A stretch of DNA of 64,000 bases from Salinicola corii (lineage in GTDB: Bacteria > Pseudomonadota > Gammaproteobacteria > Pseudomonadales > Halomonadaceae): contig NZ_VTPX01000001.1 of assembly GCF_008298015.1 (NCBI RefSeq), positions 558,001 to 622,000 on the forward strand, read 5' to 3'. How positions within the stretch are numbered: the stretch's first letter is position 1; every line of letters begins with the position of its first letter. The position numbers and the translations under genes were made by a program. Positions 5,779 to 46,547 of this stretch are shown here, one piece after another. The notes beneath the pieces were generated by a model. It made no database searches. It was not told the DNA's origin and saw only the letters and a list, made by a program, of their open reading frames with translations.

Positions 5779-7868
5779 GCCGCCGACCGTCGACAACGCA
5801 GCCGAATCGGGGGGCGAGCCCCGGCTCGCAGGGCGCGGACCAGTTCTCGCTGGCCCTGGATGGCGACGACGCCCCCACGTCGCCGACCGCGGCCGAGGCC
5901 GGCGCGCTCACCCGTGACACCCTGCTGGCGGCGCTGTCGCTGTGGGTGGCGCTGGGTTGGCTGCGCCAGCTCGACCGCCACTTCGCGCTCTTTCTGCTCG
6001 AGCGCGATCCCGCTGCCGATCCGCTGGTCGGTCTTGCCGCGGCGCTGGTCAGCCACCAGGTGGGCCGGGGCCATGTCTGCCTGTCGCTCTCCCGGGTGCT
6101 GGACGCACCACGCTCCGCGCTGTCGTTGCCGCCCCTGGAGAACGAGGGCGAGAGCGAGTCGGCGGGGGCGGTGGTGCTGCCGGAATCCCTGCTCGACCCG
6201 GTCACGCCGGCGCGATGGTTCGACGCGCTGATCGGGTCCACCACCGTTGCCGAGGCGACGGTGGCCGAGGGGCTCGCCACACCGCTGGTCGTGGACGGCG
6301 ACCGGGTCTACCTGCGCCGGTACTGGCAGGCCGAGAGCGGGGTGGCGGCACGGCTGCGCCAGCGTCTGGGGCCGCCACTGGCGGTTGACGAGGGGGTGTC
6401 CACGCGATTGCAGGCGCTGTTCACCGGCAATCGGCGCGAGCAGGGCGAACCTGACTGGCAGCGCGTGGCGTGCGCCCTGGCGCTGCGGCAGCGGCTGACG
6501 ATCATCTCCGGCGGGCCGGGGACCGGCAAGACCACCACCGTGACTCGCCTGCTGGCGCTGCTGCAGGAGCAGTCGCTGTCGGGCGGGGGCGAGCCGCTGC
6601 GGATACGGCTGGCCGCGCCCACCGGCAAGGCGGCCGCCAGGCTATCGGAGTCGATCGCGGGAGCGGTCGGCCGGCTGGAGGTCTCCGACGTCGTGCGCGC
6701 CGCCATACCCCAGGAGGCGCAGACGCTCCACCGGCTGCTGGGGGCGCGCCCGGACACGCGCCATTTCCGTCACCATGCCGAGGCGCCGCTGAGCCTCGAC
6801 CTGCTGGTGGTGGACGAGGCCTCGATGGTCGATCTCGAGATGATGGCGGCGCTGCTCGATGCCATGCCGGCGGAGGCGCGCCTGATCCTGCTCGGCGACA
6901 AGGATCAACTGGCCTCGGTGGAGGCGGGTTCGGTGCTGGGCGATCTGTGCGCGGGGGCCGGCGACGCCGGATACTCCGAGGCGACTCGCGACTATCTTCA
7001 GTCGATCGCCGGCGAGCCGTTGCCCGTTGCCGCCGAGACCAATCCGCTGGCCGATCACGTGGCCATGCTGCGCCGGAGTTTCCGCTTTCGGGCAGACAGC
7101 GGCATCGGGGCTCTCGCCAGGGCCGCCAACGCCGGCGACGGCCGCGACTTCACGCGGCTGTTGAAATCGGGTTTTCAGGACGTGGAGACGCTGGACATCG
7201 ACGCGGCGGCATTCGAGCGGGCCGTGGTGACAGGCTACCGGCCGCTGTTCGAGGCGCTGCTTGGCGGGGCGGACGTGGCATCGATTCTCGCGCTGCAGGC
7301 CCGCTTCCAGGTGCTGTGCGCCCTGCGACGCGGGCCGTGGGGCGTCGAGGGGCTGAACGATCGCATCGCCCGGGCGCTGTGGCAGCAGGGCTGGATCTCG
7401 CGCACCGATGGCTGGTTCGCGGGGCGCCCGGTGATGGTGACCCACAACGACCCCCAGTTGGGGCTCTACAACGGCGACCTGGGGCTGACCCTGGCCGACG
7501 ACGCCGGCCGGCTGCGGGTCTGTTTCCCGCAGGGCGACGGCACCCGCCAGGTACTGCCGTCGCGGCTCGATGCCGCGGCAACGGCATTCGCGATGACCGT
7601 GCACAAATCCCAGGGATCGGAGTTCGATCACGTCCTGTTCGCACTGCCGGCGCGGGCCAATCCCATCGTCACCCGGGAGCTGATCTACACTGGCATCACC
7701 CGAGCCCGCTCGCGGCTGACGCTGGCGCTGGCACAGGGCGGCAACGACGAGCGGACGTTACGCGAGGCCATCGCCCGGCAGGTGGTCAGGGACAGCGCGA
7801 TCGCGGAGCGGCTGCTGAGTCCGCCGGGATCCTCTGTGCCAAGGGATTCGTCAGGGAGTGAAACATGA
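5775..7868 (+). CDS. recD: Exodeoxyribonuclease V subunit alpha (RecD)
   Basis: This is the 5'-3' superfamily 1B helicase of RecBCD, 697 residues from the ATG at 5775. That start is preferred over upstream in-frame ones because it makes the ATGA overlap with the recB stop. Walker A is GGPGTGKTTT with Lys252, Walker B is LLVVDEASMVD, and the C-terminal motifs FAMTVHKSQGSEF and YTGITRARSRL are present. It is somewhat longer than E. coli RecD (608), mostly through the N terminus and linkers. Its stop overlaps the next gene by 4 bases, so that gene is probably co-transcribed. Confidence 0.97.
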   Translation: MSRRPSTTQPNRGASPGSQGADQFSLALDGDDAPTSPTAAEAGALTRDTLLAALSLWVALGWLRQLDRHFALFLLERDPAADPLVGLAAALVSHQVGRGHVCLSLSRVLDAPRSALSLPPLENEGESESAGAVVLPESLLDPVTPARWFDALIGSTTVAEATVAEGLATPLVVDGDRVYLRRYWQAESGVAARLRQRLGPPLAVDEGVSTRLQALFTGNRREQGEPDWQRVACALALRQRLTIISGGPGTGKTTTVTRLLALLQEQSLSGGGEPLRIRLAAPTGKAAARLSESIAGAVGRLEVSDVVRAAIPQEAQTLHRLLGARPDTRHFRHHAEAPLSLDLLVVDEASMVDLEMMAALLDAMPAEARLILLGDKDQLASVEAGSVLGDLCAGAGDAGYSEATRDYLQSIAGEPLPVAAETNPLADHVAMLRRSFRFRADSGIGALARAANAGDGRDFTRLLKSGFQDVETLDIDAAAFERAVVTGYRPLFEALLGGADVASILALQARFQVLCALRRGPWGVEGLNDRIARALWQQGWISRTDGWFAGRPVMVTHNDPQLGLYNGDLGLTLADDAGRLRVCFPQGDGTRQVLPSRLDAAATAFAMTVHKSQGSEFDHVLFALPARANPIVTRELIYTGITRARSRLTLALAQGGNDERTLREAIARQVVRDSAIAERLLSPPGSSVPRDSSGSET

Positions 7869-8674
7869 GTGTCCACGAGTGGCAGGAACTGACCACGACG
7901 GAAATGGCCGGACTGGTCGACGCGGGGACGGTGGCCGTGCTGCCGCTGGCGGCGATCGAGCAGCACGGCGCGCATCTGCCGCTTTCCACCGATCTGGACA
8001 TCGGGCTGGGCCTGCTCGAGGCGGCGGCGGCAAGACTCGCACCGGATCGGAACGTGATCCTGCTGCCGCCGCTGGCGCTGGGCTCGAGTCTGGAACACGC
8101 CGATTTCACGGGGACGTTGAGCCTGCTGCCGGAAACGGCGATCGCGGTCATCGAGGCGCTGGGCGAGGCGGTGAGCCGCGCCGGTATTCGCCGTCTGGTG
8201 CTGTTCAACAGCCACGGCGGCAACAAGGCGGTCATCGACCTGGCCGCGCTCAAGCTGCGCGCGAGGCACGCCATGCTGGTGGTCAAGGCCAACTACTTTC
8301 GCTTCACGCCGCCGGCGCAGACGCTTCCCGCCGAGGAACTCCGCCATGGCCTGCACGGTGGCGCGCTGGAAACGTCGATGATGCTGCATCTCGCCCCGGA
8401 CAAGGTTCGGGTCGCCCGGCTGGCCGATGCGGTCTCCGAAGGGCGAATCCGCGAGCAGGCCGGATCGACCCTGGGGCCGGAGGGGGATGCCGGCTACGCC
8501 TGGATGGCACAGGATCTGCACGCCAGCGGGGTGACCGGCAACGCGACCCTGGCCGACGCCGAGACCGGGCGTCGACTGGTCGATCATTTCGGCGCCCGGC
8601 TGGCGCAGGTGATCGAAGAGGCGGGAGAGTTCGATCTCGATACCTTGCGCCAACGCCATCCGGCGTCGGGGTGA
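7865..8674 (+). CDS. Creatininase-family amidohydrolase
   Basis: The protein has 269 residues and the metal-site pattern of the creatininase family: Glu32, His34 and Asp43 in AIEQHGAHLPLSTD, the NSHGGN loop, and a late Glu in HGGALETSMM. Family members hydrolyse C-N amide bonds. They include creatininase, the archaeal formamide hydrolase ArfB of flavin and F420 synthesis, and MftE-type peptidases. The exact substrate cannot be read from sequence. Its ATG overlaps the recD stop, so it rides on the recCBD transcript, while the facing neighbour is a GTP cyclohydrolase II gene. An ArfB-like deformylase role in the adjacent pyrimidine/pterin gene group is an attractive but unproven inference. Confidence 0.85.
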   Translation: MSVHEWQELTTTEMAGLVDAGTVAVLPLAAIEQHGAHLPLSTDLDIGLGLLEAAAARLAPDRNVILLPPLALGSSLEHADFTGTLSLLPETAIAVIEALGEAVSRAGIRRLVLFNSHGGNKAVIDLAALKLRARHAMLVVKANYFRFTPPAQTLPAEELRHGLHGGALETSMMLHLAPDKVRVARLADAVSEGRIREQAGSTLGPEGDAGYAWMAQDLHASGVTGNATLADAETGRRLVDHFGARLAQVIEEAGEFDLDTLRQRHPASG

Positions 8675-8725
8675 CGGGGTGCGTCTCCCGAACGCCGATG
8701 GCTGCGGCGACGATTGGGGTGGCGC

Positions 8726-9865
8726 TCAGCGCGCCACCGGACGCCGGAAAGGCGTGGCCGATCCCTCCTCGCCGTCGTCGAGAACCTCTTCCAGCCAGTG
8801 GCCGGCGCGCTTGGCCTTGGCATTCAGGTAGCGTCGGTTCTGCTTGGTCAGCTTGCCGTAGACGCCACGCCGGTTGACCACCTCGATACCGCCCTGGTCC
8901 ATGGCGGCGATCTTCTCGGGATTGTTGGTCAACAGTTCGATTCGCGCGATCTCGAGCTGCTCGAGCATCTCCAGGGCGACTTCGTAGGTTCGCTCGTCCT
9001 CCCCGAACCCGAGTACCTGATCGGCATCGACCGTATCCAGGCCTCCATCCTGCAGGGTATAGGCACGCAGCTTGTTGGCCAGCCCGATACCCCGGCCTTC
9101 CTGGGCGAGGTAAAGCAGGACGCCGCCGCCGCGTTCGTCGATGGTGCGCACGCTCTCGCGCAGCTGCTCGCCGCAGTCGCAGCGCAAACTGCCGAAAAGA
9201 TCGCCGGTGAGGCAGGCCGAATGGAGACGCACCGGCACGGCATCGTTCCATTCGCCGCGATTGCCAATCACGATCGCGATGTGCTCGCGCATGCCGTCGG
9301 CCTCCCGGAACATGACGAATTTCGCGCGTTCGGCGTGGGATAGCGGGATGTCCGCGTCACTGGTGCGTTTGAGAAAGCGCGACCGACTCTCGGAGTAGGC
9401 ATCGATCTGCTCGGCGGCGACCGCCAGGATGGTACCTTCCGCGACCAGCGCTTTGACCTGGGCGCGTTGCGCGTGGCTGACCTCGGCGACCACGGCCGCC
9501 GGGATTAGCAGGCCGATTCGCATCAGATCCAGCGCCGCCCCGCTCGCCGGATTGGCGGCGACGGGCTGGCAATCCACGGGCAGCCGCTGCGTTTCGTCGC
9601 TGGCCCAGGCGGCAATGGCGTGGGCGTCGTCGCCGGGGATGACCGGCACCAGCCCTACGCGTGGGCCGAAGTCGATGCCCAGCCGCGCCAGGCGGTGGCG
9701 GGTCAGCGCCAGTGCGGCCGGGTTGCCGGCGAGCGCCGGCAGTGCCGCCAGCGCGTCGTCGTCGCAGCCCTCGAGCGGGTGGACCACCACGTCGCCGCTG
9801 GCGGCACGCACGAGAACCGGGAGGCCGCGTCGCAGATCGAATATCGCGCGTTCTACCTGTCGCAT
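8726..9865 (-). CDS. ribA: GTP cyclohydrolase II with an extra N-terminal domain
   Basis: The protein has 379 residues. Residues of about 185-360 form a complete GTP cyclohydrolase II domain: the zinc cysteines Cys218, Cys229 and Cys231 (SACLTGDLFGSLRCDCG), the catalytic LAQEGRGIGL loop at about 253-262, and LLTNNPEKI at about 311-319. The enzyme opens GTP to 2,5-diamino-6-ribosylamino-4(3H)-pyrimidinone 5'-phosphate, formate and pyrophosphate. The first 180 residues resemble a degenerate RibB-like region; I see no intact DHBP synthase motif. A perfect 8-bp hairpin (GGTGGCGC/GCGCCACC, 8719-8739) spans the stop codon. The gene is divergent from the RibD-type reductase. It could be the housekeeping enzyme, but the context suggests a dedicated pathway copy. 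Confidence 0.88.
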   Translation of the reverse strand: MRQVERAIFDLRRGLPVLVRAASGDVVVHPLEGCDDDALAALPALAGNPAALALTRHRLARLGIDFGPRVGLVPVIPGDDAHAIAAWASDETQRLPVDCQPVAANPASGAALDLMRIGLLIPAAVVAEVSHAQRAQVKALVAEGTILAVAAEQIDAYSESRSRFLKRTSDADIPLSHAERAKFVMFREADGMREHIAIVIGNRGEWNDAVPVRLHSACLTGDLFGSLRCDCGEQLRESVRTIDERGGGVLLYLAQEGRGIGLANKLRAYTLQDGGLDTVDADQVLGFGEDERTYEVALEMLEQLEIARIELLTNNPEKIAAMDQGGIEVVNRRGVYGKLTKQNRRYLNAKAKRAGHWLEEVLDDGEEGSATPFRRPVAR

Positions 9866-10024
9866 GCTCGTCTCCTTATCCTGTCGTCCATGATCAGTCT
9901 CATCTGTGATCGCTATCCGTGATCGGCACCCGTGGTCGGCGTGGAAGAGCGGCGAGGTGAGCCGGAATGACGGCGCTCACCGCCGAACGCTCTCCGCGCC
10001 AAGGGCGATCTTTGTTACGCTGTG

Positions 10025-10948
10025 ATGCCTTCTGGCCAAGGAATGACCGTGACCGCCTCGTCCGATAACCCCGCCCACGCCGTTACGCCCACCGTGTCCG
10101 CGTCCCTGGCCTGGCGCTGGCTTCGCCAGGTGGCGGCCCTGACCCGTGACGATATGTTTGATGGTACGGTCATCGATGGACATCACCACCTGGAGATTGA
10201 CGCCGCTGGCGGTTGGTATTGTAGCCATCCGGTCGACGAGGAGGCCGCGCAACTGCTGACAATCTGGCTGCCGTGGTGCATGGCGGATATCGCTGATGGA
10301 CCGCGAGTCATTGCCCAAATCGGCCAGAGTCTCGACGGTCGCATCGCCACAGTCGGTGGCGCCTCGCACTATGTCACCGGCGAGCAGAGCCTGGTTCACC
10401 TCCATCGCTTGCGGGCGCTGGTCGATGCCGTAATCGTGGGCGCCAGCACGGTCGATGCCGACGATCCGCAGCTCACCGTGCGTCATGTCGAGGGCGACAA
10501 CCCGCTGCGGGTGGTGCTCGATCCGCGCGGTCGCGTGCCGGCCGAGAGAGGCGTCTTCATGCGGCCGGCGGTGCCCACCTGGCATCTGGTCGGTGCTGGC
10601 GTCGGTGGCCACGGCACGGCGGCGCACGTCAGCGTCAAGACGCTGACGAAGGGGGCCGCCGGCGTCGATCCGGCCGAGGTCATCGCGCTGCTCGCAGAGC
10701 AAGGCTGCCGGCGGATTCTGGTCGAGGGCGGCGGCCTGACGATCTCCCGTTTTCTCGAAGCGAAGCGTCTCGACCGCCTGCACAGCGTGGTCGCACCCAT
10801 GCTGATCGGCTCCGGTCGCCCGGCGCTGACGCTGCCCGAAATCGATTCGCTGGAAGACGCGCTGCGCCCCGTCTGCCGTCACTTCCGGCTGGGCGACGAT
10901 ATGCTGTTCGATCTCGATCTGCGCGACCGAGCTCCGTCGGCGTCTTGA
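10025..10948 (+). CDS. RibD C-terminal-type reductase, stand-alone
   Basis: The C-terminal ~210 residues match the reductase half of RibD, a dihydrofolate-reductase-like fold that reduces the ribosyl side chain of the RibA product using NADPH: AQIGQSLDGRIAT, a long variable middle, and RRILVEGGGLTISRFLEA. The zinc deaminase domain of full RibD is absent. Instead there is a ~90-residue N-terminal extension with no motif I recognise. Start choice is uncertain: GTG 10022, ATG 10025 or ATG 10043, none with well-spaced Shine-Dalgarno sequence. It ends 2 bases from the convergent membrane-protein gene and is divergent from ribA. Confidence 0.82.
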   Translation: MPSGQGMTVTASSDNPAHAVTPTVSASLAWRWLRQVAALTRDDMFDGTVIDGHHHLEIDAAGGWYCSHPVDEEAAQLLTIWLPWCMADIADGPRVIAQIGQSLDGRIATVGGASHYVTGEQSLVHLHRLRALVDAVIVGASTVDADDPQLTVRHVEGDNPLRVVLDPRGRVPAERGVFMRPAVPTWHLVGAGVGGHGTAAHVSVKTLTKGAAGVDPAEVIALLAEQGCRRILVEGGGLTISRFLEAKRLDRLHSVVAPMLIGSGRPALTLPEIDSLEDALRPVCRHFRLGDDMLFDLDLRDRAPSAS

Positions 10949-10950
10949 TC

Positions 10951-11940
10951 TCATCCGGGATGTCCCTCCGATGCCATCTTTTGGCGGACCGAGGCTACCC
11001 GGCTCGCTCGACGGTCCCACAGCACCACCACCAATCCCGGCAGACTGGCGGCAAGAACGAGCAGGCCGTAGGTCACGGACAGCGCGACTCCCTCCTGGGC
11101 CGGCAGTCCGGCCAGCGGCCAGATCAGCGCGGCAGCGCCTTCCCGTAACCCCCAGCCTGCGACGGTCAAGGGGATCGCCATGGCCATCAGTAGGGGAGGA
11201 ATCAGCGGCAGCAACTGCGGGACCGGCCGTTGAAGGCCCAAGGCCTGGGCGGCGCAGAGAAATACGGCGACGTAGGTGGCAATCACCAGTAGCGAGCTGA
11301 CTAGTTGGGCGGGCCACACGGATATTGCCAGCAGCGTTCGCCTGATGTCCTGGCCGAACGTTGCCAGTGCCGGCCAGCGCCGCCGCCTCAACACGCCCAT
11401 GGTAATGCCGGCCAGCAGCAGTGCCGCCAGCGGAAGCCATGCCAGGGTCATCGCCTGGGTATGCCATGCCCGGGCGATGCCGTGGCGTAAAGCCGGCGAG
11501 AGACAGATGGCGGCAACCGCCACGAGCAGCAGCGCCACTTGTCCGGACGCGCGCTCGATGATGACGGCTCGAACTGCCGGTCCCGACGGCGATGGTTGGC
11601 CGGCACCGGGTTGTGTCCGGGTGTTGCCGTGGCGCCAAGCCCGAGCCGCGTCCCCCAGGACGCCGCCCGGCAGCACCTGGTTCAGGAAGGTGGCCAGATA
11701 GTATTCGCGTATGGCCGTGGGCCATCGCAGTGCGATGCCGATCCGGTGAGCCGTCATTCGCCAGCGCCAGGCCGAGATCGCGACCTGGGGGATACCAATC
11801 AGGACCGCGAGCATGACCCAGGCCGGCGATAGTGCCATGAACCGTTCCAGCAGCTGGCCAGTATCCAGTTTCCACGCCAGCACGCCCAGCAGCGCCAGCG
11901 TCACGGCCAGCCGCAGCCAGGGCGACAGCCACTGATTCAC
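10951..11940 (-). CDS. Multi-pass membrane protein, LPG-synthase TM/UPF0104 family
   Basis: The protein has 329 residues and about eight hydrophobic segments, beginning LRLAVTLALLGVLAWKL. It carries the family's hallmarks: an early arginine-rich loop (WRWRMTAHRIG), EYYLATFLNQVLPGGVLGDAARAWR, and the GWGLREGAAALIW motif. This fold is the flippase-like membrane half of lysylphosphatidylglycerol synthases, and stand-alone members are found beside glycosyltransferases in lipid and polyprenyl glycoconjugate pathways. It is the last gene of a coupled operon (ATGA overlap with the methyltransferase). A role in membrane transfer or flipping of the pathway product is inference. Confidence 0.82.
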   Translation of the reverse strand: MNQWLSPWLRLAVTLALLGVLAWKLDTGQLLERFMALSPAWVMLAVLIGIPQVAISAWRWRMTAHRIGIALRWPTAIREYYLATFLNQVLPGGVLGDAARAWRHGNTRTQPGAGQPSPSGPAVRAVIIERASGQVALLLVAVAAICLSPALRHGIARAWHTQAMTLAWLPLAALLLAGITMGVLRRRRWPALATFGQDIRRTLLAISVWPAQLVSSLLVIATYVAVFLCAAQALGLQRPVPQLLPLIPPLLMAMAIPLTVAGWGLREGAAALIWPLAGLPAQEGVALSVTYGLLVLAASLPGLVVVLWDRRASRVASVRQKMASEGHPG

Positions 11941-12848
11941 GCTCGCGCTCCCGAGCGTGTTCTGTCGCTCGGGGTCGCCAGCAGATCGCGGTGACCCACG
12001 GTCAACGTCACCCGCTCACGCAGCAGATCGTCGAGACGACGGGCATGCCATTGGTCGACGCGGTCCCGCTGCTGCGGCAATTGCTGGTGAAGCGCCTCGC
12101 GCCAGCCGGCCATCAGCGCCTCGGCGAGAGGTAGCGATTCCGGTCCGAGTTGCCAGGGGGACGCGGCTTCACGGATATGGTAGCCGCGATGGCGAAAGCT
12201 CTCGCGAAGCCGTCGAGGGGCCTCGCTTCCCATCGCCGGACCGTCGCCCTTGTCGCGATGCTGGTGTGCCTGGAGCGCGGCGAGCATGAAGCGGTCGTCG
12301 TCGCCGTAAAGCGCGCTGCCGCTGGCATCGTGGAAACGGATCAGGCCATCGATACTGAGGGCGAATAGTACCGCACAACCGCTACGCTGGCAGGCATCGG
12401 CCAATGCCCCGATATCGTCGGCCGTCAGCAGGTCGAACAGCGCCGAGGCGGTGACCAGATAGGCGCCTTGCAGCGTCTCTTCCAAGGTGTCGGCAAGACT
12501 TAGGTTGACGGACTCCAGGTGGATCGGCTGGGCGTCGGCGCTGACCAGGTACTGGCAGCGCAATCTGGCGGAAGCCAGCAGTTCTTCATCGTGATCGACC
12601 AGTCGCCAGTGCTGGGCGCCATGCAAGCGCGGGGCGAGATAGCGCAGGTTGGAGCCGCTGCCACAGCCGAGATCCACGATCGTCCGGCGGGCCTCGAGGG
12701 GCCTGCTTGGATCGGCATGTCGGGTCAGCCAGCTGTCGGCGGCGTGGGTCAACTGGGCATCCCGTGCCAGATGATCGGCCGGTTCGCGCAGTGTCAGCCA
12801 CTGTTCGCTGAAAAGGGCATTCGCGTTGGGCGTCCGTCGAGACATCAC
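11937..12848 (-). CDS. Class I SAM-dependent methyltransferase
   Basis: The protein has 303 residues. The SAM-binding motif I is IVDLGCGSGSNLRYLAPRL at about residues 57-75, followed by an acidic residue ending the second strand (WRLVDHDEELL) and a motif IV-like region (YLVTASALFDLLTADD). The N-terminal segment FSEQWLTLREPADHLAR resembles small-molecule methyltransferases. The acceptor is unknown. The start overlaps the glycosyltransferase stop and the stop overlaps the membrane-protein start, both by ATGA, so it is the third cistron of a four-gene coupled unit. Confidence 0.85.
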   Translation of the reverse strand: MMSRRTPNANALFSEQWLTLREPADHLARDAQLTHAADSWLTRHADPSRPLEARRTIVDLGCGSGSNLRYLAPRLHGAQHWRLVDHDEELLASARLRCQYLVSADAQPIHLESVNLSLADTLEETLQGAYLVTASALFDLLTADDIGALADACQRSGCAVLFALSIDGLIRFHDASGSALYGDDDRFMLAALQAHQHRDKGDGPAMGSEAPRRLRESFRHRGYHIREAASPWQLGPESLPLAEALMAGWREALHQQLPQQRDRVDQWHARRLDDLLRERVTLTVGHRDLLATPSDRTRSGARA

Positions 12849-13912
12849 GGCCGCTCCTTGGATAGGCCGAAGCGAGCCAGCGCGATGCCGAATGCCTCGG
12901 CAGCGGTCTGCCAGTCGCTCAGCGTTTCACGGGCTTCGCGGGCGCCGGCCCGATAGCGGGTATAAGTCTCCGGCTCCTCGAGCATGGATCGAATGGCATC
13001 TCGTAGCGCGCTGACGTCGCCGGGCACCACCTTGATGCCAGCAGCGTCCGGCAGCGTGTGGGCCAGCGCACCACCTGTGGTGGTGACGACGGGCAGCCCG
13101 TGGGCCAGCGCCTCGGTGATCACCATGCCGTAACCCTCGTAATGCGAGGGCAGCACGAAGAGATCGGCTCCGGCGTAGAACGCTGGCAAGCGCTCCAAGG
13201 GTTGCGAGCCGAGCAGTTCGATTCGCGCTTCGAGCCGGTGCCGGGCTATCGCCTCGCGCACCTGAGCCACGTAGTGATCGGCGCGGTCGAGGGCGCCGAC
13301 CAGTTGACACTGCCATGGCAGATCGGCCAGTTCTGACAACGCCTCCACCAGGAGATCCTGGCCCTTGCGCGGCGTGATGGTGGCGATGCAGAGTAGGCGG
13401 GGTATGGCATTCGACTCTTCGTTCTTCTCGATGGGGCTGAGCTCGACGCCGGGTTCGATGACCGCGATTCGGTCGGCCGACACGTCGAAGTCGGCGAGCC
13501 GCCGGGCGGTGTAGACGCTGGTCACCATGACGCCCTCCACTGCTGCCAGCGCCCGTGTTTCGCTGATCCGGAAACGCTGCTGCTCGGGTGTGCCCAGCCC
13601 CGTTTCGTCGGCCAGTGGATGGTGGACCAGGGCGATGATCGACAGCCGCGACGCGTGACGCTCGACGATCGCCGGCAGGCCGCCCATGGCCAGGCCATCT
13701 ATGACGACGAGAGTATCCTCAGGTTGGCGAGTGAGGGCGCTGTCCAGGGCGTGAGAGGCGACGGCGTCGGGCTCGGGGAATCGTCCCTCGAGTCCGATGA
13801 CGTCGATCGTCCAGCCCGTCGCGCGCAGCGCCTCGACGATTCGCGCATCGTAGACGTAGCCGCCGGTCAGTTGTGCCGGGTCGCCGGCGACGATCAGGGT
13901 GAATTCGTTCAC
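12845..13912 (-). CDS. Glycosyltransferase family 4 (GT-B fold)
   Basis: The protein has 355 residues with a GT-B architecture. The N-terminal half has the glycine-rich acceptor loop ([20 protein letters not shown]). The C-terminal half has the nucleotide-sugar site, with [20 protein letters not shown] and the EX7E motif [16 protein letters not shown]4 enzymes are retaining transferases using NDP-sugars or similar donors. It overlaps the PTPS-like gene before it and the methyltransferase after it by 4 bases each, which ties glycosylation to the pterin-like enzymes of the cluster. Donor and acceptor cannot be predicted. Confidence 0.9.
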
Positions 13913-14307
13913 AGTCCACCCTCATAGCTGGCCCAGGCGACGTGGGATTCATGCAGGGTGACGGTCAGCGCGGTGAGATGACGTCCGCCCTCGCCGAGCC
14001 CTCCCTCGCGGATGGCGTGCGCCACCCGGTCGAAGACGATCTTGGCCATGAATTCGGTCGTGGTGTTGCGCCCTTTGAAGGCGGGCATGTCGTCGAGGTT
14101 GTTCAGGGTGAATTCGCCGAGCACGCGTTTCAGCGTCTCGCTGGCGAGGCCGATGTCGACGACGAGATCGTCGTGGTCCAGCTCCGGGCGCTTGAAAGTG
14201 ACATCGACCACGTAGGTCGCCCCGTGCAGCTTCTGTGCCGGGCCGAAGGTGTCGCTGTTGAAGCTGTGGGCGATCATCATGTGATCGCGAACGGTCAAGC
14301 TGAACAT
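13909..14307 (-). CDS. PTPS/QueD-fold protein with altered active site
   Basis: The protein has 132 residues, the usual length of the 6-pyruvoyl-tetrahydropterin synthase/6-carboxytetrahydropterin synthase family, and aligns along its length. Visible matches are AHSF for the first zinc-His segment, LHGATY for the LHGHSY segment, [18 protein letters not shown] for LNDIPGLENPTSEVLAK, and LHESHVA for the Glu-containing end. Against E. coli QueD, the catalytic Cys four residues before HGH is Ala, the second His of HGH is Ala, and the Asp-His pair is gone (TLNN). Zinc binding and the standard lyase chemistry are therefore doubtful. It is the first gene of the coupled unit, 121 bases after the dehydrogenase. 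Confidence 0.82.
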
Positions 14308-14428
14308 TCCTCTCGCTCCTTGATGAGTCGGCCTGGTGGGGGCCGGTGCCGAATTTGCGTCTTGCTGTCCCTGGCGAGTCCCCGGTGGCGAACGCGATAC
14401 CGGGTCGGTGTGATGAGGTTACGCAGTA

Positions 14429-15400
14429 TCAGCCGTAACGGATGCGCTGGCAGAGAGTATCGTCGTCACGCTGGCTCAGTCGCTTGAGTGTTTCGGGCAG
14501 ATCCCGGAAATGGCTTTCCCCGCTGATCAGTACGTCCAGGCAGTCGTGATCGAGCAGCGCCAGCGCCAGGGTGAGCCGCCGCTTGTGATTCCAGCGAGGA
14601 CGATGCCCGGGCGACACGCTGCCGACCTGGCTCGATCGCAGCGTCAGGCGACGCGCGTGAAACGCCTCGCCGAGCGACAGATTGACCTCGCGACTACCGT
14701 ACCAGCTCATTTCCAGCACGGTGGCCTCGAACCCTGCCAGTGAAAGAGCGCTTTGCAAGCCGGCATCCGACGCGCTGGCATGCACCACCAGATCCTGTTC
14801 GGCCTCGGCGGTCTCGGGGGTGTGGAAATCCACCCCCAGCGCCTCGCCGAGAAAGCGCTTGCGCTCGTCGATATCGATCAGTTGGACGTGGGTCCCGGGC
14901 AGTCGGGCGCAGAGCCAGGCCACCAGGGCGCCGACCACGCCAGCGCCGACGACGCTGATGCGGTCGCCGATGCCTGGCGCCGCGTCCCACAAGGCGTTGA
15001 GCGCCGTTTCCATGTTGGCGCCGAGTATCGCGCGCTGCGGGGGCACGCCGGGCGGCAGCGGCACGACATCCTCGACGCCGACACGGTAGTGGGTCTGGTG
15101 AGGGTGCAAGCAGTAGATGTATCGCCCGTGCCAGTCGTGCGCTCCCTGTTCTACGACGCCGACATTGGAGTAGCCGTATTTGACCGGGCCGGGAAACTCG
15201 CCGCTTTGAAAGGGGGCCCGCATTCGCTGGTATTCGCTCGCCGGTACCTGGCCGTTGAAGACCAGGGTCTCGCTGCCCCGGCTGATGGCGGAGTAACAGG
15301 TGCGGATCATCAAGTCGCCGCTGACACTCAGCTCGGCCTGGCGAATTTCGCCGTTACCGTTGCCGAGAGACCAGAAGGCATGAGCGTAAGGCGTCGTCAT
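14429..15400 (-). CDS. Medium-chain dehydrogenase/reductase, zinc-less type
   Basis: The protein has 323 residues from the ATG at 15400. It has a GroES-like N-terminal half and a Rossmann half with the dinucleotide motif VVGAGVVGALVAW followed by the acidic residue in LIDIDER. The segment SAISRGSETLVFNG replaces the Cys-containing catalytic-zinc motif of classical alcohol dehydrogenases, as in the BchC-like branch, so it is unlikely to bind catalytic zinc. It probably oxidises or reduces a hydroxyl or keto group of a ring-type substrate. It is the first minus-strand gene of the cluster and runs divergently from the CDP-alcohol transferase gene, sharing a 355-base intergenic region. Confidence 0.82.
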   Translation of the reverse strand: MTTPYAHAFWSLGNGNGEIRQAELSVSGDLMIRTCYSAISRGSETLVFNGQVPASEYQRMRAPFQSGEFPGPVKYGYSNVGVVEQGAHDWHGRYIYCLHPHQTHYRVGVEDVVPLPPGVPPQRAILGANMETALNALWDAAPGIGDRISVVGAGVVGALVAWLCARLPGTHVQLIDIDERKRFLGEALGVDFHTPETAEAEQDLVVHASASDAGLQSALSLAGFEATVLEMSWYGSREVNLSLGEAFHARRLTLRSSQVGSVSPGHRPRWNHKRRLTLALALLDHDCLDVLISGESHFRDLPETLKRLSQRDDDTLCQRIRYG

Positions 15401-15482
15401 TGCGATATCCGTTCCTTGATGACAGATCGGGATGGCGGTTCGTCGTCTCGCTGAGAGTATGGCAGAGTGTGACGAATTAGCA

Positions 15483-15501
15483 TTGTACAAATGGTGTACA
15501 A
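15483..15501. promoter_or_regulatory. Perfect 7-5-7 inverted repeat, candidate operator
   Basis: TTGTACA-AATGG-TGTACAA is a perfect dyad in the 355-base gap (15401-15755) between the divergent dehydrogenase and CDP-alcohol transferase genes, and a lone TTGTAC half-site occurs at about 15664. The 19-bp dyad is the size of MerR-type operators, but I cannot place convincing -35/-10 elements around it, so the regulator family is open. The rest of the gap shows no gene; the only other clear signal is the GGGAGGAA ribosome site at 15741-15748. Confidence 0.55.
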
Positions 15502-15755
15502 GAAGAGATCGAAAAACAAGATTCCTTCGAACCGATGGCGGTGCCGGCCATTCGCCGGCCCATGACGAGCGATGGAGAGATCGGCCAATTACCGGCGTTG
15601 CTCGCCCCGCCGATCGCCGCGATGATCAGCAATTCTCGCAAATCGGTCAAACTGCATCCAAACTTGTACGGGCAGCGTATCGGTTGGAGGGCCTCGTTAC
15701 GATCTGGCGTCATGGCTGGTCGAGGAGCGAGCCATCATTAGGGAGGAAATCACCG

Positions 15756-16517
15756 ATGCGACACTCATCGACACGTATCTCGGCAGCGGCTTTCCGCCGG
15801 GTCGGATCCCTGCGCGGCTGGGTCGAGATGGCGGCGGGGCTCGCACTGGTCGCCCTGCTGACCGAGTGGGTGCACTGGGCATTCTCGGCGCCTTCGGGCC
15901 TGCGTTTCACGGCGGGCGGCATCTACGTGGCGATTGCCACGGTAGTGCTGTGGGCCTGGCCAGCCTCGCGGCAGGGCCTCGGCTGGGCGAACCGTGTCAC
16001 GCTGCTCCGCGCAGCGCTGATCGCGATCGTTGCCGGCGTCGTGGTGTACCCGGAATTCATTCAGCGCCATGCCGAGGGCATCGCGGCGCTGTCGTTACTG
16101 GCGCTGGCACTCGACGGCATCGATGGTTGGGTGGCGCGGCGAACCGGGTCGTCCAGCGCCTTCGGGGCGCGGTTCGACATGGAGCTGGATGCGTTCTTCA
16201 TCGTCGTGCTATGCATGGCGTTGATTGCCCTGGACAAGGTGGGTGCCTGGATCCTGCTCATCGGGCTGGCGCGGTATGCCTTCCTGGTAGCTGGCGTCTA
16301 CTCGCCGTGGCTCAATCGCTCCCTGCCCGAGAGCTATTTTCGCAAGACGGTCTGCGTCTGGCAGGTGTCGACGCTGATGGTCTGCCTGCTTCCCTTCGTC
16401 GAACCCTCATGGGCTACCGCTTTCACGCTCGTGGCGGCGGCGCTGCTGGTCCTCTCCTTTGGCCGGGACATCGTCTGGCTCTGGCGCCGTCGACCCGTTG
16501 GCGACATCGAGCTCTGA
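15756..16517 (+). CDS. CDP-alcohol phosphatidyltransferase family protein
   Basis: The protein has 253 residues from the ATG at 15756, preceded by GGGAGGAA at a good distance. It carries the full CDP-alcohol phosphotransferase signature (DG-x2-DGWVAR-x8-G-x3-D-x3-D in DGIDGWVARR...GARFDMELD) and about six hydrophobic helices. These integral membrane enzymes move a phospho-alcohol group from a CDP-activated donor (CDP-diacylglycerol or CDP-alcohol) to a hydroxyl acceptor. It is not the housekeeping PgsA, which lies at 22.5 kb. Being divergent from the glycosyltransferase operon, it may attach a phospho-lipid or phospho-alcohol group to the cluster product, which is inference. Confidence 0.85.
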   Translation: MRHSSTRISAAAFRRVGSLRGWVEMAAGLALVALLTEWVHWAFSAPSGLRFTAGGIYVAIATVVLWAWPASRQGLGWANRVTLLRAALIAIVAGVVVYPEFIQRHAEGIAALSLLALALDGIDGWVARRTGSSSAFGARFDMELDAFFIVVLCMALIALDKVGAWILLIGLARYAFLVAGVYSPWLNRSLPESYFRKTVCVWQVSTLMVCLLPFVEPSWATAFTLVAAALLVLSFGRDIVWLWRRRPVGDIEL

Positions 16518-16575: not shown

Positions 16576-17163
16576 ATGAGATCCGCCCAGTTGAACATCC
16601 TTCCCGCTCTGGTGCTGCTGGCGCTGGCATCGTCGCCGGCAAACGCCGAGCCGCAGCGCTTCGACATCGATCATGAACACTTTTCCATCGCTTTCATGGT
16701 GGATCATCTGGGTTACGCAAACCTGCTCGGACAGTTCCTGGAGGGCGAGGGCGCTTTCGTCTACGACCGCGAGACGCAAACATTGGTCTCGGCAGAGGTC
16801 ACGATCCAGTCCAGTAGCGTCTTCACCAATCTCGGCGCTCGCGACGAGCATCTGCGGGGGCGCGACTTTCTGGACGCGGACAATCATCCCCGGATACATT
16901 TCGTAGCCACGGATTTCAAGCCGTCGTCCCCGACGACGGGGTCGCTGAATGGCAAGCTCACGCTGCTGGGTCGTACCGAGCCGGTCACGCTGGACGTCAC
17001 GTTGAATCAGGATGCGGTTTATCCGTTCGGGCCCGGGCAGCCCACGCTGGGGCTATCGGTCCGGGGCGCTCTTGATCGCAGTAACTGGGGGATGAATTAT
17101 GGCGTCGACGACGGGATGGTCGGCGACCATGTGACCCTGATCTTCGAATTGGAAGCGGTATAG
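16576..17163 (+). CDS. YceI-family periplasmic lipocalin-like protein
   Basis: The protein has 195 residues from the ATG at 16576, with AAGGAGG at 16564-16570. A clear Sec signal peptide ends about residue 24 (ANA|EPQ). The mature part has the YceI pattern: FDIDHEHFSIAFMVDHLGYANLLGQF, then SSVFTNLGARDEHLRGRDFLDADNHP, and a C-terminal beta barrel. YceI proteins bind isoprenoid-type hydrophobic molecules in the periplasm. The gene is 58 bases after the CDP-alcohol transferase on the same strand, so co-transcription is possible. Confidence 0.9.
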   Translation: MRSAQLNILPALVLLALASSPANAEPQRFDIDHEHFSIAFMVDHLGYANLLGQFLEGEGAFVYDRETQTLVSAEVTIQSSSVFTNLGARDEHLRGRDFLDADNHPRIHFVATDFKPSSPTTGSLNGKLTLLGRTEPVTLDVTLNQDAVYPFGPGQPTLGLSVRGALDRSNWGMNYGVDDGMVGDHVTLIFELEAV

Positions 17164-26045: not shown

Positions 26046-26121
26046 GGGGCCTTAGCTCAGCTGGGAGAGCGCAACACTGGCAGTGTTGAGGTCAGCGGTT
26101 CGATCCCGCTAGGCTCCACCA
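26046..26121 (+). tRNA. tRNA-Ala (GGC)
   Basis: This 76-nt tRNA has acceptor GGGGCCT pairing with AGGCTCC, anticodon loop CTGGCAG (GGC), T-arm GGTTCGATCCC and encoded CCA. It is intact on the host side of the prophage. It is not the insertion site, because trp leader sequence of host type lies between it and the integrase. Confidence 0.97.
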
Positions 26122-26842: not shown

Positions 26843-28021
26843 ATGCCTCTATCAGACACCAAAATCCGCAATGCGAAGCCGCGTGACGCCGTCTACCGAC
26901 TGTCCGACACCGATGGCCTATGCATCGAGATACGACCTTCAGGCGCGAAGACGTGGAGATTACGCTACCGGCTCGACGGCAAGGCGAACATGCACACCAT
27001 CGGCTCATACCCGTCTATCTCGCTCAGCGTAGCACGCGAGCGCAGAGACTGGGGTAGGGCGCTCATTGCGCGAGGAATCCATCCACGCGAAGAGGTTGAG
27101 CGGGAGAAGCGGCGTCGAATCGCTGATGCCGGTGCCACGTTCGGCGCAGTCGCGGAAGAGTGGTTCGCTAAGCGCACGGATGAATGGACGGACTACTACG
27201 CCACCCAGGTTAGGCGAGGGCTGGATCAGGACATACTCCCGGTCATCGGAAAGCGCCCGATCAAGGAGGTTGGCGCGCAGGACATCCTGTCGATCATGCA
27301 GGCAACCGAGAAGCGCGGCGCCAAGACTGTAGCCGTGCTTCTTAGGCAGTGGATGAGCGCTGTTTTCCGGTATGGAATCGTGACGCTGCGCAACGACGAG
27401 GATCCAGCATCGCACGTCAAAGGCGCGGTGAAGCGCAACGAAGTGAAGCACGCGGTCGATCTCAATGAATCACAGTTGCGCCATCTTCTAGGCCAGCTTC
27501 AGGTGTTCGGCGGCTATCGGACGACACAGCTCGCCATCCGGTTCCTGCTGCTGACGATGGTGAGAACGATCGAGATGCGCCGTGCGCGGTGGGATGAAAT
27601 CGACATCGAGGCACGGCTATGGCGTCTGCCCGAGGAAAGCATGAAGCGCCGGCAGAAACATCTGGTGCCGCTGTCCGATCAGGTTGTGTCGCTGCTCGAG
27701 GAGCTGCGCGACTATACCGGTGGCGGAGACATCCTGTTCCCGGGCATGAAGAATCCGCGCCAGCCTATCCATCTCACGACGATCAACCAGGCGCTCGGAA
27801 GGATGGGTTTCGGGAAGGGCGAGTTCTCGGCGCATGGATTTCGCGCCACGGCCTCAACGCACATGAACGAGCACGGCTGGTCTCCGGACGCCATAGAGCG
27901 CCAACTGGCACACGTGCCCGGGAATCGAACACGCAAGAGCTACAACCACGCTCAATATCTCGATGAGCGTAGACGCATGATGCAATGGTGGGCAGACTAC
28001 ATTGACGGCCTGGGTGGATGA
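26843..28021 (+). CDS. int: Tyrosine-type prophage integrase (P4-like)
   Basis: The protein has 392 residues. The N-terminal arm-binding domain is of DUF4102 type (MPLSDTKIRNAKPRDAVYRL, DGLCIEIRPSGAKTWRLRY). A SAM-like core-binding domain follows, then the catalytic domain with Arg in LLTMVRTIEMRRARWDEID, HGFRATAS for the HxxR box, and the nucleophile Tyr near KSYNHAQYLDERR. It is read away from the presumed attL, into the prophage. Integrases of this class usually target tRNA genes, so the apparent trpG target is noteworthy. Confidence 0.95.
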   Translation: MPLSDTKIRNAKPRDAVYRLSDTDGLCIEIRPSGAKTWRLRYRLDGKANMHTIGSYPSISLSVARERRDWGRALIARGIHPREEVEREKRRRIADAGATFGAVAEEWFAKRTDEWTDYYATQVRRGLDQDILPVIGKRPIKEVGAQDILSIMQATEKRGAKTVAVLLRQWMSAVFRYGIVTLRNDEDPASHVKGAVKRNEVKHAVDLNESQLRHLLGQLQVFGGYRTTQLAIRFLLLTMVRTIEMRRARWDEIDIEARLWRLPEESMKRRQKHLVPLSDQVVSLLEELRDYTGGGDILFPGMKNPRQPIHLTTINQALGRMGFGKGEFSAHGFRATASTHMNEHGWSPDAIERQLAHVPGNRTRKSYNHAQYLDERRRMMQWWADYIDGLGG

Positions 28022-28091: not shown

Positions 28092-29075
28092 ATGATTTGC
28101 ACAGTTACAACTGCGCTAGAAAGCTATGAATACCTAAAAAAATTCGCAGAAGCAAATATACGACTCGGGGCAGACCATATTTTCTTGTTTCTTGATGATG
28201 GTGATCATGAGAAGGCAGCTTATCTTAACAACCACCCAAATATTACAGCAATACCTACAGACAATAAATATTGGGGAAGAAATAGGCCAGAAAGCTTAAA
28301 CGATAGGCAAAATATAAATTCAAATAAGGTGAATTATGTTTTATCTGATTTGGATTTTGACGTATGGTTAGCAAGCATAGATTCCGATGAATTCTTAAAC
28401 ATATGCAAAGAGTATATTTTAAACATAAAAGGAAAGAGGTACGTTAAGCTGCACACTTATGAGAAATTATGCTTTCCAGTAGAAAATTCGTGCGATGACT
28501 ATTGCATATTGAATGATTGCGCCATTCCTGAGAATGGTAGAGTGGATATCTTTAAGAGGAAATTGTCAGACACGGAATTGGATCTTGCTGTATTGCTTGG
28601 ACTTATAGGAGAATCTTCTAACTCTAGTTATTTTAATGGACACACTGCCGGTAAATATATCGTGAAGGCATCAAAAGACATAGTGATGGGGGTACATAAT
28701 GCTAAGAGGAATGACGGAAAATGGATTGCGTCTCATAAACCTGAAGACATGGAATTTTCTGTCCTGCACTACGATATGCCAAGCTTCAGTATTTTTTTAG
28801 ATAAGTGGGGGAGGCACGCACACGGGGCCGGTAGCTCTTCGTTCAGGGGGGCTAGGATGATGATCAAGAACTCAATATCGTTGATAAATGGAAGACTATT
28901 AAATAATGATGATTTAAGAGAGAAATATTTAAAGAAAATATACAGCCAGATGGTTGTCAAAAATATAAAACAATTTGTTGAACTAGACCTTTTGGTCTGC
29001 GTAGATTTTAATGAGAATTATTCACCAAATGGCTTTTCAAAGGAAAGAATTGATTTTATACTTTCGTGCTTTTAG
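28092..29075 (+). CDS. AT-rich glycosyltransferase-like accessory gene
   Basis: The protein has 327 residues with AAAGGAAGGG before the ATG. The start reads MICTVTTALESYEYLKKF, then LGADHIFLFLDDGD, and DVWLASIDSDEFLNI contains a DxDEF motif like the metal site of GT-A family 2/92-type glycosyltransferases. It is much richer in A and T than everything around it, a sign of recent acquisition. The place beside int is typical of lysogenic-conversion genes, so it may modify surface polysaccharide. That role is inferred, and the family assignment is moderate. A hairpin CCCCTCC/GGAGGGG at 29088-29115 separates it from the facing tail-spike gene. Confidence 0.7.
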   Translation: MICTVTTALESYEYLKKFAEANIRLGADHIFLFLDDGDHEKAAYLNNHPNITAIPTDNKYWGRNRPESLNDRQNINSNKVNYVLSDLDFDVWLASIDSDEFLNICKEYILNIKGKRYVKLHTYEKLCFPVENSCDDYCILNDCAIPENGRVDIFKRKLSDTELDLAVLLGLIGESSNSSYFNGHTAGKYIVKASKDIVMGVHNAKRNDGKWIASHKPEDMEFSVLHYDMPSFSIFLDKWGRHAHGAGSSSFRGARMMIKNSISLINGRLLNNDDLREKYLKKIYSQMVVKNIKQFVELDLLVCVDFNENYSPNGFSKERIDFILSCF

Positions 29076-46252: not shown

Positions 46253-46547
46253 CGTCTATCTCCGATTCTTCGGGTTGAGAGCGCTTGCGCTCCTCGTGGA
46301 ATTGATCGAATTCGAACGCCATGCGAGAGGGAAGGAGAGGGTCGGCAGTGGCCAGTAGATCGAGCATCGCCTTGGCTCCAGCACGCCTACCCTGATGGAA
46401 CGCCATCATCTGCGGGTCGGCCTGAGCAGCGACGGAGCGGTACCCGAGACTTTCCGCGAGATCAAAAAAAGCGAGCCGAAGCTCGCCATCTTTGAATGCT
46501 GTCTCTATCGCTCGTCGCCGCGATTCGCGGATCTCTTCATCCGTCAC
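46245..46547 (-). CDS. Small Bbp19-like phage protein
   Basis: The protein has 100 residues, helical, with AFKDGELRLAFFDLAESLGYRS and MAFHQGRRAGAKAMLDLL. It lies between portal and scaffold genes and overlaps both (4 and 8 bases). Similar small proteins occur at this place in BPP-1-like phages. Role unknown. Confidence 0.6.
   Translation of the reverse strand: MTDEEIRESRRRAIETAFKDGELRLAFFDLAESLGYRSVAAQADPQMMAFHQGRRAGAKAMLDLLATADPLLPSRMAFEFDQFHEERKRSQPEESEIDDG

What the first reader, a model, noticed from the sequence alone, without database searches (positions are those of the whole stretch)
7865..16517. Gene group that appears to build a modified, membrane-linked pyrimidine or pterin compound from GTP
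Seen: GTP cyclohydrolase II, RibD-type reductase without deaminase, PTPS-fold protein, zinc-less dehydrogenase, GT4 glycosyltransferase, SAM methyltransferase, LPG-synthase-type membrane protein, CDP-alcohol transferase and a creatininase-family amidohydrolase sit together. PTPS-GT4-methyltransferase-membrane protein overlap by 4 bases each. Known: RibA plus a RibD-type reductase plus an ArfB-like hydrolase can produce diaminopyrimidines, and GT4 plus flippase-like plus CDP-alcohol transferase proteins act on membrane glycoconjugates. Inference: one pathway joins these, possibly making a glycosylated pterin- or flavin-like lipid or pigment. I know of no described product.
Basis: partly seen in the sequence, partly recalled or inferred. 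Interest (0 to 1): 0.88.

Follow-up and report, generated by a model that had tools for sequence, protein, structure and literature searches.

The report
Widespread GTP-to-membrane biosynthetic gene cluster
A block of about ten genes in a salt-loving Salinicola bacterium, whose core recurs in the same order in many unrelated bacteria and, more distantly, in salt-loving archaea, appears to turn GTP into an unknown sugar-bearing compound that is probably attached to a membrane lipid and shown outside the cell membrane.

Summary
In detail: all nine gene families lie at the stated place, and the three 4-base overlaps are exact. The window is from Salinicola. These are not the riboflavin genes: the genome has separate ribA, ribBA-like and full ribD genes. 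The core dehydrogenase-PTPS-GT4-methyltransferase recurs across Pseudomonadota and Actinomycetota and, distantly, in haloarchaea, often with a RibD-type reductase, CDP-alcohol transferase, flippase-like protein, GTP cyclohydrolase II and creatininase. New here: YceI belongs to the block; an unlinked membrane sulfatase-fold enzyme co-occurs with it (28 of 31 genomes with the GT4, 0 of 27 without); and a TGTACA-N5-TGTAYA site occurs in 10 of 18 Salinicola genomes, one place each, always at this block's promoter. That motif fits CarH/LitR light-regulator operators. The PTPS-fold protein lacks PTPS's catalytic residues and matches the solved SCO6650. Best reading: a GTP-derived diaminopyrimidine or pterin is glycosylated, methylated, joined to phospholipid, flipped and processed outside. 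All chemistry, the lipid link and light control are inferred. Against a universal membrane step: of 16 loci fetched from a phylum-wide sample, mostly outside the family, only 2 carry the CDP-alcohol gene nearby.

The parts
7865..8674 (+). creatininase-family amidohydrolase; candidate deformylase/amidase of the GTP-derived intermediate
   Evidence: PF02633 E 1e-64; no NCBIfam equivalog cut-off met; in 42 of 80 named loci; overlaps recD by 4 bases
8726..9865 (-). GTP cyclohydrolase II paralogue with an N-terminal extension that has no Pfam match; keeps the Tyr recalled as typical of canonical enzymes
   Evidence: PF00925; one of three GCHII matches in the genome; Tyr at switch position
10022..10948 (+). 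RibD_C-type pyrimidine reductase without deaminase domain
   Evidence: PF01872; best PDB match 6p8c, 2,5-diamino-6-ribosylamino-4(3H)-pyrimidinone 5'-phosphate reductase, E 8e-25; separate full RibD elsewhere
10951..11940 (-). LPG_synthase_TM / flippase-like membrane protein
   Evidence: PF03706; in 53 of 80 named loci, 27 of 29 actinobacterial
11937..12848 (-). class I SAM methyltransferase of the cluster
   Evidence: PF13649; model pLDDT 92.8 with generic methyltransferase matches; 76 of 80 named loci
12845..13912 (-). GT4 glycosyltransferase
   Evidence: PF00534; E-x7-E visible in the alignment; 78 of 80 named loci
13909..14307 (-). PTPS-fold protein lacking the PTPS catalytic residues (SCO6650 type)
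   Evidence: PF01242; profile hit 3d7j E 9e-59; residues compared
14429..15400 (-). zinc-less MDR dehydrogenase
   Evidence: alignment A4; PDB neighbours are MDR dehydrogenases, many of them polyol dehydrogenases; start
15484..15500 (.). TGTACA-N5-TGTACA promoter element, the only exact one in the 4.65 Mb genome
   Evidence: (10 of 18 Salinicola genomes have TGTACA-N5-TGTAYA, one place each, at this block); spacing test; CarH repeat definition
15756..16517 (+). CDP-alcohol phosphatidyltransferase family membrane enzyme with intact catalytic motif
   Evidence: PF01066; motif invariant in 20 sequences; model pLDDT 93.9, nearest folds PGP, PIP and PS synthases at weak E-values
16576..17163 (+). 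YceI-like protein; N-terminus looks like a signal peptide (by eye)
   Evidence: PF04264; YceI in 32 of 137 loci, usually beside the CDP-alcohol gene

Best explanation
The block encodes one dispersed pathway of two modules. Soluble module: GTP cyclohydrolase II opens GTP to a 2,5-diamino-6-ribosylamino-pyrimidinone phosphate; the creatininase-family enzyme probably removes a formyl group or another amide at this stage; the deaminase-less RibD_C reductase reduces the ribose to a ribityl chain while the 2-amino group stays; the PTPS-fold protein binds this 2-amino-4-oxo compound and does a non-PTPS reaction on it (for example ring closure to a pterin); the zinc-less dehydrogenase acts on a side-chain alcohol; GT4 adds a sugar and the methyltransferase a methyl group. 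Membrane module: the CDP-alcohol transferase joins the product, or a part of it, to a phospholipid; the LPG_TM protein moves it across the membrane; a membrane sulfatase-fold enzyme, encoded about 110 kb away in this genome, and YceI act on the outer face. A TGTACA-repeat promoter, perhaps bound by a LitR/CarH-type regulator, switches the block on, perhaps in light. Shown: gene content, conservation, co-occurrence, loss of PTPS catalytic residues, unique promoter site. Inferred: every chemical step, the lipid attachment, the flipping, the side of the membrane, the regulator and the light response.
For: Block conserved across phyla. Separate housekeeping ribA, ribBA-like and ribD. RibD_C nearest in the PDB to 6p8c, ahead of bacterial RibD. 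Reduction precedes deamination in archaea, with a formylated intermediate in M. jannaschii (PMC3403918 passages). PTPS-fold residues. Actinobacterial cluster GCHII with Met or His at the switch residue always with creatininase (19 of 19), with Tyr never (0 of 3). CDP-alcohol motif invariant in 20 of 20, nearest folds PGP/PIP/PS synthases. Sulfatase-fold enzyme in 28 of 31 GT4-bearing genomes and 0 of 27 others; the exceptions G012, G025 and G027 also lack LPG_TM at the locus. Promoter site unique in each of 10 genomes, matching CarH repeats.
Against: Of 16 loci fetched from the phylum sample, chosen mostly outside the window's family, only 2 have CDP-alcohol and 2 LPG_TM genes nearby; 9 have OpgH. 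RibD_C is found in 11 of 29 actinobacterial loci. 35 of 46 Tyr-type non-actinobacterial GCHIIs also have creatininase, so its deformylase role is not general. NCBIfam scores RibD_C higher with the bacterial C-terminal model (138 bits) than with the archaeal one (100 bits), both below cut-off. G021 has the sulfatase-fold gene but no LPG_TM at its locus. G027 keeps GT4 without PTPS. 8 of 18 Salinicola genomes lack the exact promoter site. The candidate regulator shows no B12-binding domain by Pfam. No metabolite is known.
Confidence: 0.47

Rival explanations
1. The product is a soluble glycosylated, methylated pterin or diaminopyrimidine (cofactor, antioxidant, pigment or signal). The membrane genes serve its export or redox recycling, and the CDP-alcohol enzyme is not on the main path.
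For: The soluble core is the most conserved part (80, 80, 78 and 76 of 80). Of the 16 loci fetched from the phylum sample 14 lack CDP-alcohol and LPG_TM genes nearby, and 7 carry cytochrome b561. G025 keeps the soluble genes except the methyltransferase, with no CDP-alcohol or LPG_TM gene at its 20 kb locus. Tetrahydrobiopterin glucosides made by a GT4 enzyme are known in cyanobacteria (recalled).
Against: CDP-alcohol gene in 69 of 80 named loci, beside the core in Actinomycetota, Pseudomonadota and Acidobacteria-labelled contigs and near it in Haloarcula; near-perfect co-occurrence with a membrane sulfatase-fold enzyme.
Confidence: 0.3
2. Two pathways share a mobile block: a riboflavin-precursor branch (GCHII, RibD_C, creatininase) and an unrelated glycolipid branch (GT4, methyltransferase, LPG_TM, CDP-alcohol enzyme).
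For: GCHII, RibD_C and creatininase come and go independently of the core; RibD_C divergence follows the core and membrane families less well (r 0.47-0.70) than GCHII does (0.81-0.91) (not corrected for the species tree).
Against: A PTPS-fold protein with the Glu recalled as the pterin anchor lies in the middle of the GT4 operon with 4-base overlaps; the association is repeated in unrelated phyla.
Confidence: 0.13
3. These are ordinary riboflavin, queuosine or folate genes.
For: Family names; automatic annotation as 6-carboxytetrahydropterin synthase and GTP cyclohydrolase II in public records.
Against: Separate ribA, ribBA-like and ribD in the genome; QueD cut-off not met (41 of 89 bits); catalytic residues lost.
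Confidence: 0.02

Closest known systems
Streptomyces coelicolor SCO6650 (PDB 3d7j) and its cluster partner SCO6655
   Same: The PTPS-fold protein matches SCO6650 (profile E 9e-59); Streptomyces loci have the same block. By recall, SCO6655 is a GCHII that stops at the formylated product, and SCO6650 lacks zinc and the catalytic triad.
   Different: Actinobacterial cluster GCHII mostly has Met or His at the switch residue, the window has Tyr. The wider context (CDP-alcohol enzyme, flippase-like protein, sulfatase-fold enzyme, promoter site) is not described in any paper listed by my searches.
Toxoflavin/fervenulin-type pathways (recalled)
   Same: Use GTP cyclohydrolase II and RibD-type enzymes for a secondary product.
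   Different: By recall no PTPS-fold protein, GT4, flippase or CDP-alcohol transferase; not searched here.
Mycofactocin (creatininase MftE plus glycosylation; papers seen in a search listing only)
   Same: Creatininase-family enzyme beside glycosylation and dehydrogenase genes; the creatininase scores best with MftE (112.6 bits, cut-off 172).
   Different: I noticed no precursor peptide or radical SAM gene in the block (not searched for specifically); the pathway here appears to start from GTP.
LitR/CarH light regulons (PMC9758184, PMC9304148, passages only)
   Same: TGTACA half-sites; folE, folX and folM are in the light-responsive Pseudomonas gene sets described.
   Different: Spacing here is N5 (11-bp period) as in CarH, not N12; the regulator is not identified.

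Membership tests
6-pyruvoyl tetrahydropterin synthase / QueD (enzymatic) | catalytic Cys and Asp-His pair, three-His zinc site (roles recalled) | tested here: not met
   Aligned positions show Cys replaced by Ala, HGH by HGA (HGT in one), D-H by N-Y in the profile and T-L in the window; haloarchaeal L126 keeps an HxH but no Cys
PTPS fold, SCO6650 subfamily | match to the solved member and conserved Glu recalled as pterin anchor | tested here: met
   3d7j E 9e-59; Glu120 invariant in A1, A2 and A3
GTP cyclohydrolase II, canonical product type | zinc cysteines and Tyr at the switch position (recalled) | tested here: met
   C-x10-C-x-C visible in the translation; Tyr; the enzymatic product is not testable here
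Bifunctional RibD | N-terminal deaminase domain | tested here: not met
   Only RibD_C found; full-length RibD elsewhere in the genome
ArfB deformylase (NF033501) | curated score 180 | tested here: not met
   19.2 bits; fails as a member, may still act alike
CDP-alcohol phosphotransferase | D-x2-D-G-x2-A-R-x8-G-x3-D-x3-D motif | tested here: met
   Invariant in 20 of 20 aligned sequences; fold matches
Zinc-dependent MDR alcohol dehydrogenase | catalytic zinc ligands | tested here: not met
   Conserved blocks carry Ser and Tyr where the Cys and GHE His are expected (expectation recalled)
LtaS/OpgB/EptA-type transferases (linked sulfatase-fold enzyme) | sequence match to a solved or curated family | tested here: inconclusive
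   Pfam Sulfatase 23 bits, below cut-off 25; no NCBIfam hit for the representative; no PDB hit at E 0.01
CarH/LitR operator | tandem 11-bp repeats nnnnTnnACAn | tested here: inconclusive
   Two repeats present; TGTACA is self-complementary, so a dyad for another regulator fits too; binding not tested

The most novel reading that the evidence does not exclude
A previously undescribed class of membrane lipid or surface glycoconjugate, with a glycosylated and methylated pterin or diaminopyrimidine head group made from GTP, is produced across Bacteria and haloarchaea, is flipped to the outer face of the membrane, and is switched on by light through a LitR/CarH-type operator as a photoprotective or redox-active membrane component.
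Probability: 0.22. Interest if true: 0.95.

Novelty: new variant of a known kind. Interest (0 to 1): 0.8.

Why it matters
Yet the product is unknown, and the name '6-carboxytetrahydropterin synthase', seen on these proteins in public records, is misleading for members that have lost the catalytic residues. The co-occurring membrane enzyme and the unique promoter site make the function directly testable: they say where to look (lipid and periplasmic fractions) and suggest when (light against dark). A GTP-derived membrane head group would be a new type of membrane lipid.

Tried and rejected
Rejected: housekeeping riboflavin, queuosine or folate function. An apparent long fusion of LPG_TM in five genomes I read as an open frame running antisense over RibD_C. 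An apparent acyl-CoA dehydrogenase partner (12 loci) was dropped: a direct search found it in 1 locus, and I infer that the grouping came from frames antisense to the sulfatase-fold gene. Other families listed also look like antisense frames and were not used. In one search the rows own_L002 and own_L003, and the read of L218, were on the wrong strand; they were not used, and reads L003, L211 and L218 correctly. A class II LitR site with N12 spacing is absent from the genome in strict form. LitR-like and photolyase genes are not linked to the block (1 weak hit and 0 hits in 137 loci). The methyltransferase model matched generic class I methyltransferases. The Natrialba magadii paper does not describe the cluster in the passages seen. 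Paper searches aimed at the cluster or its proteins listed no description of its product; only listings and start of abstracts were seen, and most subscription papers are not held.


Full report
What is there. They lie on both strands: creatininase +, GTP cyclohydrolase II (GCHII) -, RibD_C +, then LPG_TM, methyltransferase, GT4, PTPS and dehydrogenase on -, and CDP-alcohol transferase +. PTPS, GT4, methyltransferase and LPG_TM overlap by 4 bases each. The likely starts of the dehydrogenase and CDP-alcohol genes are 15400 and 15756, and a YceI gene follows at 16576-17163. The window belongs to Salinicola: three 'same genus' contigs have exactly the lengths of named S. halophyticus, S. halophilus and S. 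salarius contigs.

Not the vitamin genes. The genome has three GCHII matches and two RibD_C matches. The copies outside the block are a short RibA, a RibBA-like fusion and a RibD with its deaminase part (by reading the translations). So the block carries paralogues.

Conservation near home. GT4 orthologues (E at most 4.1e-90) are in 31 of 58 genomes, own included (two more have weak hits at E 1e-21). In 18 of the 20 relatives whose locus was fetched, GT4 comes with PTPS, the dehydrogenase and the methyltransferase. The exceptions are G027, which has GT4 without the other families at its locus and no PTPS match in its genome, and G025, which lacks the methyltransferase there. Seven family members without GT4 also gave no PTPS match (which had no positive control).

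Conservation far away. In an even class sample 17 of 369 genomes have the PTPS-like gene at E 1e-25. Of the 14 loci fetched from these, GT4 is beside it in 14, dehydrogenase 13, methyltransferase 13, CDP-alcohol 11, RibD_C 11, LPG_TM 9, YceI 9, GCHII 4, creatininase 3 (three loci end early). They include three ~1 Mb genomes of one family (L081-L083). In a phylum sample 26 of 398 genomes have it at E 1e-22. I fetched 16 of these loci, leaving out the window's family: dehydrogenase 16, GT4 15, methyltransferase 14, RibD_C 13, OpgH 9, GCHII 7, cytochrome b561 7, FkbM 5, CDP-alcohol 2, LPG_TM 2, sulfatase-fold 2, creatininase 1, YceI 1. Among the best 80: dehydrogenase 80, PTPS 80, GT4 78, methyltransferase 76, CDP-alcohol 69, RibD_C 54, LPG_TM 53, creatininase 42, GCHII 42, YceI 17, OpgH 10, b561 1 (21 of the 80 lack full flanks). 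They are Pseudomonadota, Actinomycetota (29) and three metagenome contigs labelled Acidobacteria or Gemmatimonadales. Plasmids of Streptomyces, rhizobia, Methylosinus, Arthrobacter, Microbacterium and haloarchaea carry PTPS or dehydrogenase relatives (28 and 29 records). In Haloarcula the order dehydrogenase-PTPS-GT4-methyltransferase-like is the same, with creatininase and CDP-alcohol genes within 7 kb, though identity is only about 20-32%.

The PTPS-fold protein. Its profile finds PDB 3d7j (SCO6650 of S. coelicolor) at E 9e-59; chains named PTPS and QueD are at E 2e-7 to 5e-4. In those alignments the catalytic Cys falls on an Ala, the second His of HGH on Ala, and the Asp-His pair on Asn-Tyr (Thr-Leu in the window), while a C-terminal Glu is invariant in A1, A2 and A3. 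The roles of these residues, and the two papers on SCO6650 and SCO6655, are recalled; I tried one identifier for each paper and neither was held.

The GTP end. RibD_C is closest in the PDB to the 2,5-diamino-6-ribosylaminopyrimidinone phosphate reductase 6p8c, although NCBIfam ranks the bacterial C-terminal model first. With no deaminase, the expected product keeps its 2-amino group. In archaea reduction precedes deamination, and M. jannaschii has a formylated intermediate (PMC3403918, passages only). In Actinomycetota the cluster GCHII has Met (12) or His (7) where the window and the genome's own RibA have Tyr, and all 19 loci carry creatininase; the 3 with Tyr do not. Elsewhere 46 of 47 have Tyr, 35 of them with creatininase, and one has Ile with creatininase. 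By recall Met at this place makes the formylated product. This supports a deformylase role in Actinomycetota only.

The membrane end. The CDP-alcohol motif is invariant in 20 of 20 sequences. The model (pLDDT 93.9) matches PGP, PIP and PS synthases first, at weak E-values of 0.01 and above. A membrane sulfatase-fold family lies within the fetched flanks in 30 of 137 loci, including Actinomycetota; a Haloarcula neighbour has a weak Sulfatase match. Searched in the same 58 genomes, it is in 28 of the 31 with GT4 and in 0 of 27 without. Counting G027 as cluster-free, the split 28/2/0/28 gives Fisher 1.5e-14, and by genus 12 of 13 against 0 of 28 (uncorrected for phylogeny). In this genome it is unlinked, about 110 kb away, with none of the tested block families around it. 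The three GT4 genomes without it are G027 (GT4 only), G012 (no LPG_TM at the locus) and G025 (no LPG_TM, CDP-alcohol or methyltransferase at the locus). One counter-example, G021, has it without LPG_TM at the locus. I read this as a product that is processed on the far side of the membrane.

Regulation. The gap between the divergent dehydrogenase and CDP-alcohol genes contains TGTACA twice at an 11-base step (window 15484-15500). It is the only exact site of this kind in the genome. With TGTACANNNNNTGTAYA, 10 of 18 Salinicola genomes have a match, one place each, 1.5-1.7 kb upstream of the GT4 places, that is, at this block's promoter; 8 of 18 have none; the reversed control gives 0. Over 91 divergent gaps, half-site pairs TGT[AG][CT] peak at spacing 11: 13 of 67 non-actinobacterial and 6 of 24 actinobacterial, against 0-1 at the other spacings tried except 18 (5 of 67), with shuffle means of 0.35 and 0.18 (related and some duplicate loci included). 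CarH operators are tandem 11-bp repeats with TnnACA (PMC9304148 passages); class II LitR sites are TGTACA-N12-TGTACA, and light-responsive genes in that work include folE and folM (PMC9758184 passages). This genome has a 305-aa MerR protein beside a photolyase, with TGTACG-N12-TGTACA upstream. No B12 domain was detected, and TGTACA is self-complementary, so the regulator is a guess.

Judgement. One pathway: about 0.85. GTP as starting point: about 0.7. Product attached to lipid or processed outside the membrane: about 0.5. Light control: about 0.35. The parts are of known kinds; the combination and its product match nothing listed by the paper searches. The most novel reading, a light-induced GTP-derived membrane head group shared by bacteria and haloarchaea, stays open.

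Noticed in passing
window 26843-50095: Prophage-like region beside tRNA-Ala (26046-26121): integrase at 26843-28021, T7-like tail-fibre N-terminus just under its Pfam cut-off (29124-31619), major capsid protein GP7 (44523-45560) and head-tail connector (46544-48244).
   Followed up: partly
window 28092-29075: Glycosyltransferase-like gene in a 40% GC stretch (neighbouring 2 kb bins 53-58%) just inside the prophage-like region next to the integrase; possible cargo.
   Followed up: no
L223:6767-9222 (G000:C1): MerR-type 305-aa regulator directly upstream of a DNA photolyase gene, with TGTACG-N12-TGTACA upstream: a probable LitR-phr light operon.
   Followed up: partly
L044, L136, L146, L179, L180, L122, L118: OpgH (in several with OpgG, periplasmic glucan synthesis) and an FkbM methyltransferase sit at the edge of the block in several halomonads and other Proteobacteria; whether the product decorates glucans is open.
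   Followed up: partly
window 7865-7868: In Salinicola the creatininase gene overlaps recD by 4 bases, so the block sits against recBD; elsewhere it lies in other settings.
   Followed up: yes
L071, L073, L075, L159, L161: A cyclopropane-fatty-acid synthase-like gene lies in the flanks of the block in some Proteobacteria (7 hits in 137 loci, 2 of them weak).
   Followed up: partly
L043 (G027): A genome of the same family that keeps an intact GT4 orthologue although PTPS and the sulfatase-fold gene gave no match.
   Followed up: yes
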